From: Candidatus Magasanikbacteria bacterium GW2011_GWA2_37_8
GTDB taxonomy: Bacteria > Patescibacteriota > Patescibacteriia > Magasanikbacterales > GWA2-37-8
Assembly: GCA_000992085.1 (NCBI GenBank)
Contig: LBTN01000004.1
Span: 1 to 36,331 of the forward strand
Direction of reading: 5' to 3'
DNA: 36,331 nucleotides
Position 1 is the first letter of the stretch. Each line of letters opens with the position of its first letter. Under the pieces are notes generated by a model, which ran no database searches, was not told where the DNA came from, and saw nothing but the letters and a program-made list of their open reading frames with translations. The position numbers were made by a program, and so were the translations under genes. Positions 22,138 through 36,331 of the stretch are shown here, one piece after another.

Positions 22138-22156
22138 TGAATAATAAAATAAATTT

Positions 22157-23124
22157 ATGATTAAAAATAAAAAAATTAAAGTTGCAGTTTTGATGGGTGG
22201 GCCATCTAGTGAAAGAGAAGTTTCTTTAATTACCGGTAAAGCGGTTTTTGATAATTTGGATAGAAAAAAATATCAAGTAAGTTTGATAGAAATGGATAAG
22301 CAAAGTAAGTTTTGGTTAAAAGAAAAAGAGGGGAGACGTTTAGTTGATTTTGTGAACAAAGATCGTAACAAGTTTGATGTAGTGTTTATCGCCTTGCACG
22401 GCGCACCTGGTGAAGATGGTTCAATACAAGGTATGTTTGATACTTTGGGAATAAAATATACTGGTTGCGGAGTATTATCGAGTGCTTTATCAATGAATAA
22501 GGTTTATGCCGGACAAATATATTTTATTAACGGCTTGCAATTAAACCAGTAGACCAGGGTTCGGCGGTGGGTGTTTCGATTGTTAAATCAGAAAAAGAAT
22601 TAACCACAACAATAGATAAAACAATAAAACTATTTCCTTGGCTGATGGTACAAAAATTTATTAAAGGACAAGAAGCTACTTGTGGCGTGCTTGAAAAAAA
22701 TGGTGATATTTTTGCTTTACCGCCAACTCGCATAATAGCCAATGCTGGTAAATTTTATGATTACAAATCAAAATATTCTAAAGGCGGTTCTACTCACATT
22801 TGTCCGGCAGATTTTTCTCCAGAAATTAACGAACAATTACAACATTTAGCATTGTTAGCACATAAAGCGCTGGGTTGTTCTGGAATGTCGCGTACCGATA
22901 TTTTTGTAGCAGACGAAGAAAATGAAAGTTGTGGTTGTGATGATGGTTGTAACGAAACTAGTTGTCATCAAACTTCAAAATCATGCCATAGTAATAAATT
23001 ATATATCATTGAAACCAATACTATACCTGGTATGACTTCTACTAGTTTGTTGCCAGAAGCGGCTAGTAAAATGGGTATTAAATTTAGTGAGATGTTGGAT
23101 TTGATTGTTAAAGCAAGTTTGTAA
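22157..23124 (+). pseudogene. ddl: D-alanine--D-alanine ligase, interrupted by frameshift/deletion (ORFs 22157-22552 and 22567-23124)
   Basis: MGGPSSEREVSLITGKAV..FIALHGAPGEDGSIQGMFDTLGIKYTGCGVLSSALSMNKVYAGQIYF; second frame RLAIKPVDQGSAVGVSIVKS..IIETNTIPGMTSTSLLPEAA. Confidence 0.9.
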
Positions 23125-30680: not shown

Positions 30681-32552
30681 TTATTGTGTCAAATATTTTT
30701 TTCCCCACCACATAAGCCAATCACGAGCAATCGGAATAGAAACTATACCGCCTTCGCCACCTTCTTCGATTAAGACAGTAATAACAATTTTTGGATTTTC
30801 GTAGGGTGCGAAAGCTGTAAACCAGGCGTGGGTGTCTTTGGTGCTGCTCCATTGTGCTGTTCCTGTTTTTCCACCAGAAGTAAATGGTAAGGTTGTAAGA
30901 AGGCGACAACTGCCGTTAGTTACACAAGACTGGGCTGCTTTGCGTATAGTGTTAGCTGTTTCTGCCGATACAATGCCAGTTTTTTTAAATGGTAAATTAA
31001 CAGTAGTATTTATATTTTTTATTGGATCTTCTATCTGATAATTAAGATGGGGTGTAACTAAATTACCATCATTAGCAATTGCCGCAGTCCATTCGGCTAC
31101 TTGAAGTGGTGTAACTAATAGATCGCCTTGACCAATAGATAAATTGTAAGTATCGCCGATATACCAAATTTCATTTTTAGTCTGTTTTTTCCAATCTGGA
31201 CTTGGAACAAAACCAGTATCTTCTCCGGGTAAATCAATACCCGTTTTTTCGCCTAAATTAAAAATCCGCATGTACTTGGTTAGTCTTTCGATGCCGAGAC
31301 CTTCAAAATCTTTATATCCACCCCCAATATAATAAAAAAATGTATTGACGGATGATGCGATTGCACTAAAAACATTGGTGCGGCCATGTCCGCCCACCTT
31401 CCAGTCTTTAAAAAACCATTTACCTACATAAATACCACCCACACTTAAGACGCTAGTTTCGGCCGTAATAATCCCCTCTTGCAAAGCTGCGGCCGCTACT
31501 ACAAATTTTGCTACGGAACCAGATGGGTAAGTGCCGCCAATAACGCGGTTAAATAATGGTTTGTCTGGATTATTAATTAGTTTTTGATATTCGTCTGTTT
31601 TAATTCCTCCAGAAAATAAGTTGTTATCAAATGATGGCCAACTAACCATAGCTAATATTTCTCCATTTTGCGGATTCATGGCCACTGCTGCAATTCGTTT
31701 TTTTCCAATCTGTTCGGATTTCTTTTTTATTAAATTTTCAAGCTCTCGTTGAGCTTCTAGGTCGATAGTTAAAAATAAATTTTTACCTGGCAGGGGTGGT
31801 TCTTCTGCAATAACATTTTGTTCTTTTCCTAAAGCGTTAACCTCAATTTTTTTCTTACCGTATTGGCCGCGTAAATCAGTTTCATAAACTTAAACCGTAC
31901 TGGTCGAATTATCGCTATGAGTATAAATATAATCACGCTTGTTTCCGCTTTCAACTAAAACACCTGGTAAATCGGCGTTTTGAATATATAACTTTAGTGC
32001 CGTTTCATAATCAAGGTTTTCTTTGATTACAATTGATTCATAGCTATAATTATGATATTTTTCTAATATTTTTTTAATATCTTCTTCCGGCACCGAGCTA
32101 ATAGCGGCAATTTTACTAATAATTATTTGACGTTTTTCTGTATCGTTAGGAAAGTCTTGCGGAATAATAGCTAGCGAAAAACTTGGTATATTCTGCACTA
32201 ATTGTTTGCCATTACGGTCAAAAATAATACCACGTTCCGACGGGATCGGGCGTAGGCGAATACGGTTGCCTTCTGCTAAAACACGATATTCGGCACCGTT
32301 AATAACTTGAATATAAAATATTTTTCCTAAAATAATTATTAAACCCAATACGATAATTATTATTAGCCATCGTAGTTTATCTTCATTAATACTTTTTCCT
32401 AGATAGTTGCGTGTACTTGTTGATGCGGTTTGTTTGCCGATATTTTTTTCAAACACAAAAGATTCTTCCACCCATTTATTTTTAAATTTTCCTGTCAGAT
32501 TATTATGAGGGACACTGTCTTCCGAAATATCGAATATTTGTTTCTCGACCAT
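30681..32552 (-). pseudogene. mrdA: Penicillin-binding protein 2 (transpeptidase) split by an in-frame TAA at about 31890 with apparent loss of an internal segment
   Basis: N-part IRLRPIPSERGIIFDRNGKQLVQNIPSFSLAIIP; same frame after TAA reads VYETDLRGQYGKKKIEVNALGKEQNVIAEEPPLPGKNLFLTIDLEAQRELE..MNPQNGEILAMVSWPSFD..SGGKTGTAQ. Confidence 0.88.
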
Positions 32553-32554
32553 AA

Positions 32555-33100
32555 TTAAAAAATATTTTTACGATTCAAAATTACATATGACGGATTGAAG
32601 CGTTTTGTAAATAATGTAGTGATTAGATAAAATAATACTAAAATACCAATAGTTAAAACACATTCCCATAACCAACTAATTATTATTTCCGACCAGAGCA
32701 AATCGATGCTACTACCAAATAATTGACCGCCTATCAAAAATAAATAAAATAATAAACGATATAAAATAAAGCTAAAGATACCGGCGAAAAGAACAATTAA
32801 AATCGAACGATTGGTAATGATGTTCAAAAGCAGCCAATTAGTAATTAGAAAACTTATAAATAATGAGATAGCACTAACGCCAAATGGAACCACTGAAAAT
32901 AATTCTGATATTAGTACTGTAGGTAAAACTAGCCAAAGGTTGTTGTTTTGTGGCCAAATAATAATTGCGGCTCCTAAAAATAAAAAAATTAAATTAAAAC
33001 AATTAAATGGAAAATCAAACCAATCTCGTAAAGCTAGGTGTAAAAATATTACAGTAATAATAAGTGTTAGCCACATTATTTTTTTTAATAACCAGGCCAT
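32555..33100 (-). CDS. mreD: MreD-like rod-shape-determining membrane protein
   Basis: Small polytopic protein between mreC and mrdA. Confidence 0.7.
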   Translation of the reverse strand: MAWLLKKIMWLTLIITVIFLHLALRDWFDFPFNCFNLIFLFLGAAIIIWPQNNNLWLVLPTVLISELFSVVPFGVSAISLFISFLITNWLLLNIITNRSILIVLFAGIFSFILYRLLFYLFLIGGQLFGSSIDLLWSEIIISWLWECVLTIGILVLFYLITTLFTKRFNPSYVILNRKNIF

Positions 33101-33103
33101 AAA

Positions 33104-33815
33104 TTAATTAGTTAGAAGCACGCTTACTACTGTTAGTTTGGATAGATCGATCGCTGGAGCTAGTATTGCTTGCTGAAATGGTTGGTAAGCCTCATTTTCG
33201 ATTGCGGCAATTGTACCAATCAATAAACCGCGCGGTACATTTAATTCTAAACCGGAAGTAATTACTTGATCGTTATTTAGTACTATCTCATTGCGAGGAA
33301 TAAAATTCATTTTTACGCTTAATCCATAGCCTCCTTCAACAATTCCTAAACTTTGCTTTCGGTTTAAAATAGTTGCTGCTATCTTGCTATTATTATCGTT
33401 AATAAGCCGTACAAAAGATATGTCATTTTCTACTTGAATGATCTTGCCTACTAAAATTCCTTCGCCTACTATTACTGGTTGTTCTATTTTTATTCCAGCT
33501 AGTTCGCCCGCGTTAATAATAATTGCTCTATCAGAATCTTCGCTGTCTTTTCCTATTACTCTGGCTGTTACCGAAGGAATTGATTTGCGTTCGCGAAAAT
33601 TTAGTTGGCTTTTTAATTCTTTATTTTCTTCTGTTAAGATTTTATATTGCGCTAATAACACAGCCTGCTCCTGTCGTTCGCTTTGGCAGCTGGTCCAGTT
33701 TGTCTGCCAATCTGTCTGCTGTTTATTAATTTCATCGGTGGTGATATTCTCTGCTTTAATAAGATGTAGTTTGGTTAGTGCTGGGTTAAAAATTTGTCTG
33801 GTTAGATTTTCTATT
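33104..33815 (-). CDS. mreC: MreC, C-terminal part only (N-terminal TM region replaced)
   Basis: Coiled coil ILTEENKELKSQLNF then beta domain SVTARVIGKDSEDSDRAIIINAGELAGIKIEQPVIVGEGILVGKIIQV; syntenic mreC-mreD-mrdA order. Confidence 0.85.
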
Positions 33816-34141
33816 GGTCTCCATCCGGTGACAGTAAGCAGCGGATGTTCCGGGGTGGCTATCAGCCTGCCTTTAGTGGTCCGTATGACCATGAGGCGGC
33901 TTTTCTTCGCGTAAGTCTTTACTACCGACGCCCGCACCAGCCGCTCGCCGGTGTAGGCCAGCACCTTGTCGCCGGGGCGGATCTCCTCTATAGGCCTGTC
34001 GCCCTCGATCGTGGAGATCTGCGTCCCGGCAGGGAAGCAGCCGCCCCCGAAGTCGCCACCCCCGCCATCACCGCCGCCTGCCCTTGGCCAGGCGGAGGAG
34101 AGAGGGGCCGCAAGTAAAAATGCCAGCAGCAGGTGTCTCAT
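33816..34141 (-). CDS. Secreted Hint-domain protein, N-terminal part, fused in frame to MreC
   Basis: Signal peptide MRHLLLAFLLAAPLSSA, Gly-rich linker, CFPAGTQISTIEGDRPIEEIRPGDKVLAY..ATPEHPLLTVTGW; GC-rich. Confidence 0.8.
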
Positions 34142-34338
34142 TAGTGAAGGGCGGCTATCAGGCCGGCTAGTACGGCCGCGGCTATTATTATGCTGACGCC
34201 CAGTATGGCGGCGGACACGATGCGCCCGAAATAGTCGGCCACGGCGCGGTTGCCGCGTATTATTTCCTTGCCCTCGTCCAGGTCGGGGGTTATTTTATCG
34301 AATACCGCGGGGATGCGGGAAGAGAACCAGACCAGCAT
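34141..34338 (-). CDS. Small DUF350-like membrane protein
   Basis: DEGKEIIRGNRAVADYFGRIVSAAILGVSIIIAAAVLAGLIA; stop overlaps next start as TAATG. Confidence 0.6.
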   Translation of the reverse strand: MLVWFSSRIPAVFDKITPDLDEGKEIIRGNRAVADYFGRIVSAAILGVSIIIAAAVLAGLIAALH

Positions 34339-34474
34339 GAACGACCCCCCTTTTTTGCGGGCTCCGAAAATGCTAAAATAAAAACGTAGGCAGTCCGGTC
34401 GGCCTGATTCCAGAAGTCCTGTCAGTTCCCGGTAAATTTCACTGCTGACGCGCTACGCGGCGCGGCTTTCTTCT

Positions 34475-36202
34475 ATGATAACGATCAGGAATATATACAA
34501 ATCCTTCTCTTCCCAGTCCCTTTTTGAGGGCGCCTCCCTGCAGATAAACGAGGGCGAGCGCTTCGCGCTGGTCGGCCCCAACGGCTCCGGCAAGTCCACC
34601 CTTTTTAAAATGATGCTCCGCGAAGAGGAAGTGGACGACGGCGAGATACAGTTCAAGAAAGGCGTGGTGGTGGGATCCCTGCCGCAGGAAAACGCGCCCA
34701 CCTCCGAACGCACCGTGGTCGATGAAACCCTGGACGGGGTGGAGGACTACGACGGCCGCATAGAGTCGGAGGCCAAGGCCATCCTGATGGGCCTGGGCTT
34801 CAAGGTCACCGATTTTACCCGCAAGGTGAACACGCTGAGCGGCGGCTGGTCCATGCGCGTGGCCATGGCGAAGCTCCTGGTCAAAAAGCCGGACCTGCTG
34901 CTGCTGGACGAGCCCACCAACCACCTGGACCTGGACTCGCTGCTCTGGCTGCAGGAATACCTGGAGAGCTACCAGGGCGCTATTTTTGTGATGAATTTCC
35001 TGGCCCAGCGCCAGTCGGAAAAAGACAAGGTCTACTCGGCGTGGCGCCAGCAGCAGGACGACATCGCGCAGATGGAGGACTTTATCGCCCGCAACCGGGC
35101 GCGCGTCTCCACCGCCTCCCGCGTGCAGAGCATGATCAAGCGCCTGGACAAACTGGAGCGCATAGAGCTGATAGCGGAAACCAAGGCCGTGAAGATCCGC
35201 TTCCCGCAGCCCAGCCGCACCGGCACCAAAGTGCTGGAGCTCAGGAATATCAGCAAGGTTTACAATGTCCCCGGCCACGAACCGATAAAGGTTTACGAGG
35301 GGTTCGACTTCGAACTCCTGCGCGGCCAGAAGATGGCCTTCGTCGGGCATAACGGCGCGGGCAAGTCCACCCTTTTGAAACTGCTGGCCGGCGTTATCGA
35401 GCCGGACTCGGGCGAGCGCGTGCTGGGCCTGAACGTGAAGACCGGCTATTTCTCCCAGCACCGCGAGGGGATACTGGACCCGCGCAAGACCGTGCTGCAG
35501 GAAGCCATGGACAACGACAGGATGAACCCGGAACTGGTGGTGAGGACCGTGCTAGGGTCCTTCCTGTTCCCCGGCGACAACGTGCATAAAAAGACCTCAG
35601 TGCTTTCCGGCGGTGAAAAAAGCCGCCTGATGCTGGTAAAGCTGCTGATGGACCCGCCCAACGTGATACTGATGGACGAGCCCACCACCCACCTCGATAT
35701 GGCCAGTGTTGACGCCCTGGTAGCGGCCCTCAAGGAGTTCGAGGGGACGCTCTGCTTCATCAGCCACGACATCTATTTTATAAACGCCCTGGCCGATTCA
35801 GTGGTGCACATAGAGCAGGGCAAGACCACCGTCTACCCCGGCAACTACGATTACTTCCGGTACCGCCAGGACCAGATCCAGGCCGAGAACGCGGGCGCGA
35901 AAAAGAAAGCCGCGCCCGCCCCCGCGCCTAAGGCCGACAGCGCCGACTATGAAGAGAAAAAGCGCCAGGAAGCCGAGGCCCGCAAAAAGACCCGCCGCGC
36001 CGAGACCCTGAAAAAAGATATAGCCTACGCCCGTAAAACGGTGGAAACCCTCGCCGCCAAAATGTCGGCCCCCGAAATTCACGCGGATTACAGCCAGGTA
36101 AAAGAGCTGGGCGATAAAATAACGGCCCTGGAAGCAAAAATTGCCGCCCACACGGAAGAGCTAAAGGCGCTGGAAGCCGGCGAAGGCGCGGTTAGTCAGT
36201 AA
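34475..36202 (+). CDS. ABC-F family ATPase with truncated first nucleotide-binding domain
   Basis: Two Walker A (GPNGSGKST, GHNGAGKST), two signatures (LSGGWSMRVAMA, LSGGEKSRLMLVK), DEPTNHLD / DEPTTHLD; NBD1 lacks the segment after GAIFV. Confidence 0.92.
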   Translation: MITIRNIYKSFSSQSLFEGASLQINEGERFALVGPNGSGKSTLFKMMLREEEVDDGEIQFKKGVVVGSLPQENAPTSERTVVDETLDGVEDYDGRIESEAKAILMGLGFKVTDFTRKVNTLSGGWSMRVAMAKLLVKKPDLLLLDEPTNHLDLDSLLWLQEYLESYQGAIFVMNFLAQRQSEKDKVYSAWRQQQDDIAQMEDFIARNRARVSTASRVQSMIKRLDKLERIELIAETKAVKIRFPQPSRTGTKVLELRNISKVYNVPGHEPIKVYEGFDFELLRGQKMAFVGHNGAGKSTLLKLLAGVIEPDSGERVLGLNVKTGYFSQHREGILDPRKTVLQEAMDNDRMNPELVVRTVLGSFLFPGDNVHKKTSVLSGGEKSRLMLVKLLMDPPNVILMDEPTTHLDMASVDALVAALKEFEGTLCFISHDIYFINALADSVVHIEQGKTTVYPGNYDYFRYRQDQIQAENAGAKKKAAPAPAPKADSADYEEKKRQEAEARKKTRRAETLKKDIAYARKTVETLAAKMSAPEIHADYSQVKELGDKITALEAKIAAHTEELKALEAGEGAVSQ

Positions 36203-36331
36203 TTTTCCAGTGTGTCGAAGGTGGAGGGCCTGGCGAGGGTATGGGCCCGGCGGGCGCGCTATCGGCCACACCGTGGCCGCGCTCACCGCTCGGCCTCGGC
36301 GCTACGCAAGCCTCGGCCTCCGCGAAGGCCC

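What the first reader, a model, noticed from the sequence alone, without database searches (positions are those of the whole stretch)
33800..33840. Abrupt genome switch inside one ORF: Hint-domain N-terminus fused to MreC C-terminus
To about 33.81 kb the sequence is AT-rich with AT-ending codons. Beyond it the sequence is strongly GC-rich on both strands. The switch falls inside ORF 33104-34141, where a signal peptide/Hint start (CFPAGTQIS..TPEHPLLTVTGW) runs into RPIENLTRQIFNPALTKLH.. and an MreC coiled coil and beta domain. MreC should instead begin with a TM helix. The joint may sit in microhomology, since GW+P and PIENL suit both families. A chimeric assembly or amplification product is the simplest explanation; a real fusion or HGT would be remarkable.
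Basis: partly seen in the sequence, partly recalled or inferred. Interest (0 to 1): 0.7.

Follow-up and report, generated by a model that had tools for sequence, protein, structure and literature searches.

The report
Assembly chimera joining two bacteria
The odd 'fusion gene' is not a real gene: a contig of one small-genome bacterium has had a 2.5-kb piece of an unrelated Elusimicrobia genome glued to its end by the metagenome assembly, so this is an ordinary sequencing artefact.

Summary
At about 33,818 the contig switches from about 35% to 60% GC inside ORF 33104-34141(-). The AT-rich side is the native genome: a 5'-truncated mreC followed by mreD and mrdA. All 18 relatives whose fetched locus reaches upstream have mreB directly before mreC; here the matching mreB lies stranded 62 bp from the end of another contig of the bin (C37), as expected if mreC's start was lost there. 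The GC-rich side is Elusimicrobia: an ABC-F gene 83-88% identical to several Elusimicrobia MAGs, beside the first 107 codons of a secreted Hint protein that lies divergent to ABC-F in 17 Elusimicrobia loci. The rest of the Hint gene is absent from the bin. The contig ends in a dispersed repeat with dozens of copies per Elusimicrobia genome. The same contig has three further local losses of about 90-110 nt (ddl, mrdA, ABC-F), all inside conserved genes, which points to poor assembly rather than biology. No genome examined carries a Hint-MreC fusion. Verdict: not a real feature; low interest.

The parts
33104..33818 (-). Native mreC, 5'-truncated (lacks start and TM helix), last about 238 codons
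   Evidence: Pfam MreC E=5e-35; 34-61% identity to MreC of relatives, with mreB-mreC-mreD order there; only mreC in the bin
33803..33840 (.). Chimeric joint (most likely 33818)
   Evidence: change point of Markov models and end of homology on both sides
33819..34141 (-). 5' part (about 107 codons) of an Elusimicrobia secreted Hint protein gene
   Evidence: up to 71% identity to Elusimicrobia Hint ORFs lying divergent to ABC-F; two intact versions scanned are Hint + Tim44
34141..34338 (-). Small membrane-protein ORF (65 aa) overlapping the Hint start codon, Elusimicrobia
   Evidence: read from sequence; DNA match of query 85-598 (window 33834-34347) in several Elusimicrobia genomes
34475..36202 (+). 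Elusimicrobia ABC-F ATPase gene, lacking 90 nt after about 34992
   Evidence: 83-88% aa identity to several Elusimicrobia MAGs; 90-nt gap against every relative aligned
36225..36331 (.). Elusimicrobia dispersed repeat at the contig end
   Evidence: dozens of copies per Elusimicrobia genome; no second copy found in the bin
32555..33100 (-). Native mreD
   Evidence: 27-38% identity to ORFs directly after mreC in relatives
30681..32552 (-). Native mrdA (PBP2), broken by a local loss of about 100-110 nt near 31890-31928
   Evidence: TIGR03423 match; 30-37 aa missing against relatives and an in-frame TAA

Best explanation
An artefact: the joint does not exist in any cell. A 2.5-kb fragment of an Elusimicrobia genome was joined there and runs to a dispersed Elusimicrobia repeat, where the contig ends. 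The Hint-MreC ORF is open only because the joint happened to fall in frame; it has no function of its own. Shown: two source organisms, broken synteny on both sides, absence of the fusion in relatives, and other assembly-like lesions in the same contig. Inferred: that the fault arose in assembly or scaffolding software rather than in a chimeric library or amplified molecule (that variant is listed as a rival but is part of the same verdict 'artefact').
For: GC and oligonucleotide break at 33818. ABC-F is 83-88% identical to several Elusimicrobia MAGs. A Hint gene is divergent to ABC-F in 17 Elusimicrobia loci, full-length versions mostly about 590-640 aa. The remainder of the Hint gene is absent from the bin. 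mreB lies directly before mreC in all 18 relatives whose locus reaches upstream, while the bin's matching mreB sits 62 bp from the end of contig C37. The contig end is a dispersed Elusimicrobia repeat. Local losses of 97 nt in ddl, about 100-110 nt in mrdA and 90 nt in ABC-F fall in the same contig. MAGs are known to suffer local assembly errors, chimeras and contaminating fragments (PMC7111523).
Against: No reads were available, so there is no direct evidence on spanning coverage. A de Bruijn assembler normally needs a shared k-mer to join two sequences, and no long shared word is evident at the joint; a scaffolding or gap-closure error, or a chimeric molecule, would be needed. The bin contains another GC-rich stretch (contig C40, about 450-2350) bounded by AT-rich DNA on both sides, so composition alone would not prove contamination.
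Confidence: 0.97

Rival explanations
1. Sub-variant of the artefact: a chimeric DNA molecule made in the laboratory (multiple displacement amplification, PCR or ligation) was sequenced and assembled faithfully.
For: The joint and the 90-nt ABC-F loss look blunt, without a long shared word, as such chimeras can be.
Against: Three other local losses lie in the same contig, in genes of both organisms, which fits repeated assembler faults better. The method used for the bin is unknown.
Confidence: 0.2
2. Real horizontal transfer: the small-genome bacterium acquired an Elusimicrobia segment that fused the Hint start to its mreC.
For: The ORF is open through the joint and the DNA is contiguous in the contig.
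Against: It would have removed the start and membrane anchor of the only mreC and separated it from mreB. The imported DNA stops at a contig end inside an Elusimicrobia repeat, ABC-F carries an internal loss, and no relative has the fusion.
Confidence: 0.01
3. A genuine conserved Hint-MreC protein, for example one in which Hint chemistry releases or splices MreC.
For: Both domains score above the Pfam cut-offs in one ORF.
Against: 55 of 57 genomes searched (the bin included) have a matching MreC; the relatives' MreC proteins inspected start with a TM helix and no Hint. Elusimicrobia Hint ORFs run into their own C-terminal Hint block and beyond, never into MreC. The Hint domain here is cut before its C-terminal block, so it is not expected to process anything.
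Confidence: 0.003

Closest known systems
MreC (PF04085) of the mreB-mreC-mreD-mrdA rod-shape operon
   Same: C-terminal about 238 codons and downstream gene order
   Different: start codon and membrane anchor replaced by foreign sequence
Elusimicrobia secreted Hint-Tim44 protein next to an ABC-F gene
   Same: signal peptide, Gly-rich stretch, CFPAGT Hint start, divergent ABC-F
   Different: cut after about 107 of about 590-640 residues
Chimeric or contaminated contigs in metagenome-assembled genomes (PMC7111523)
   Same: foreign fragment at a contig end, taxonomic and GC switch, further local assembly errors
   Different: happens to leave an open reading frame across the joint

Membership tests
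MreC (PF04085) | C-terminal beta-barrel core domain | tested here: met
   E=5e-35 over the whole model
MreC (PF04085) | N-terminal TM helix before the coiled coil | tested here: not met
   present in 16 of 16 relatives, absent at that place in the window ORF
MreC (PF04085) | lies directly downstream of mreB | tested here: not met
   all 18 relatives with the upstream region fetched have it; here mreB is on contig C37
Hint / intein-like self-processing domain | N-terminal block with catalytic Cys | tested here: met
   CFPAGT...TPEHPLLT, TIGR01445 above cut-off
Hint / intein-like self-processing domain | C-terminal block (PPHTFIADGFIVHN in relatives) | tested here: not met
   present in the intact Elusimicrobia ORFs, missing in the window
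Chimeric metagenome contig | two parts with different taxonomic origin | tested here: met
Chimeric metagenome contig | native partner sequence found on another contig edge | tested here: met
   mreB at C37:63-1040(-)
Chimeric metagenome contig | no reads or pairs spanning the joint | not testable with these tools
   raw reads are not available

The most novel reading that the evidence does not exclude
A real, recent transfer of Elusimicrobia DNA into a small-genome bacterium that fused a secreted Hint start to its only mreC.
Probability: 0.01. Interest if true: 0.6.

Novelty: not a real feature. Interest (0 to 1): 0.04.

Why it matters
It shows that contig C4 of this bin is unsafe from about 33.8 kb on. 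The 'Hint-MreC' protein and the Elusimicrobia ABC-F and repeat should be removed before anyone infers domain fusions or gene transfer from this genome. The bin's ddl and mrdA should also not be called pseudogenes without checking the reads.

Tried and rejected
Searched the bin for the rest of the Hint gene (none) and for a second mreC (none). Looked for Hint-MreC fusions in 57 genomes (the bin plus 56 relatives) and in 13 Elusimicrobia Hint ORFs (none). Looked for a shared word at the joint and at the 90-nt ABC-F loss: nothing convincing, but the exact parents are not held. Considered whether GC-rich stretches are normal in this genome: one exists in C40, so composition was not used alone. A literature search for MreC with Hint domain found no paper. 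A family-wide Elusimicrobia search failed on a handle rule and was replaced by a search of ten of the Elusimicrobia genomes.

Full report
What was checked. The window is the whole of contig C4 (36,331 bp) of an 864,631-bp bin of 44 contigs. ORF 33104-34141(-) is real as an open frame and holds a Hint start and an MreC end. GC content is 0.346 +/- 0.025 per kb before the joint and 0.60 after it, with third-position GC 0.27 in the MreC part and 0.75 in the Hint part of the same ORF. Fourth-order Markov models of the two kinds of DNA place the change after position 33818, with an 8-bit support interval of 33803-33931. Homology on both sides ends in the same place: the Elusimicrobia Hint proteins align up to 'TPEHPLLTVTGW' and the relatives' MreC proteins align from about 'RPIENL' on. 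'GWRPIENL' can be laid against either family, so the homology alone leaves an uncertainty of a few codons.

The AT-rich side. MreC homologues occur in 55 of 57 genomes searched, the bin included. In all 18 relatives whose fetched stretch reaches upstream, mreB lies directly before mreC, and mreD follows in 16 of them; the other two have mreC within 45 bp of a contig end. Sixteen relatives examined have an N-terminal hydrophobic helix in MreC; the window ORF has none there. The bin has a single mreC. Its closest match to the relatives' mreB is on contig C37 at 63-1040 on the minus strand, so only 62 bp are left before the contig stops; they hold the mreB end and an ATG six bases after the mreB stop codon. 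Relatives place the mreC start 1-14 bases after the mreB stop in most cases. The native order was therefore most likely mreB (C37) - mreC start (lost) - mreC rest - mreD - mrdA (window). The lost piece is roughly 25-45 codons (inferred).

The GC-rich side. The ABC-F protein at 34475-36202 has its close relatives almost only in Elusimicrobia MAGs, several at 83-88% identity. In 17 of those loci a Hint ORF lies divergent to ABC-F, in most of them a few hundred bases away as here, and DNA similarity covers window 33834-34347 in several of the ten genomes tested. Most full-length versions are about 590-640 aa, and the two scanned carry a Tim44 domain after the Hint domain. The window has only the first 107 codons, and the rest is nowhere in the bin. 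The last 107 bp of the contig are a GC-rich, partly self-complementary repeat with dozens of copies in each of several Elusimicrobia genomes, but with no second copy found in the bin. A contig that stops in a dispersed repeat is typical of short-read assembly.

Other damage in the same contig. ABC-F lacks exactly 90 nt at about position 34,993 compared with the Elusimicrobia relatives aligned, removing the conserved SHDR (H-loop) region of its first ATPase domain. mrdA lacks 30-37 residues near 31,890-31,928 and has an in-frame stop codon. ddl has a net loss of 97 nt near 22,537 that shifts the frame. In a screen of some of the bin's other contigs, with sparser coverage, only 13-17 residue gaps were seen, which may be natural. 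Three losses of about 90-110 nt in conserved genes of two organisms on one contig point to local assembly errors. Such errors, chimeras and contaminating fragments are well described for metagenome-assembled genomes (PMC7111523).

Conclusion. The Hint-MreC ORF is a chance in-frame joint between a small-genome bacterium and an Elusimicrobia fragment. There is no mechanism to explain: the Hint part lacks its C-terminal block and the MreC part lacks its anchor. Whether the fault arose in software or in a chimeric molecule cannot be decided without reads; the repeated local losses favour software.

Noticed in passing
window 36225-36331: About 107-bp GC-rich, partly self-complementary dispersed repeat, with dozens of copies in each of several Elusimicrobia genomes; possibly a REP/MITE-like element.
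   Followed up: partly
window 22140-23124: ddl (D-Ala-D-Ala ligase) is split by a net 97-nt loss near 22,537 compared with three relatives.
   Followed up: partly
window 31890-31928: mrdA (PBP2) lacks 30-37 residues and has an in-frame TAA compared with relatives.
   Followed up: partly
L030:406-2310 (bin contig C40): GC-rich (about 0.6) 634-aa ORF with a prepilin-like start (FDLIELMVV) flanked on both sides by AT-rich DNA near a restriction-modification-like cluster; a possible transfer or another mis-join.
   Followed up: no
L032:3765-5522 (-): Elusimicrobia carry a secreted Gly-rich Hint + Tim44 protein divergent to an ABC-F gene in at least 17 loci; its role is unknown.
   Followed up: partly
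window 34141-34338 (-): A 65-aa membrane-protein ORF whose stop overlaps the Hint start (TAATG), which suggests translational coupling in Elusimicrobia.
   Followed up: no
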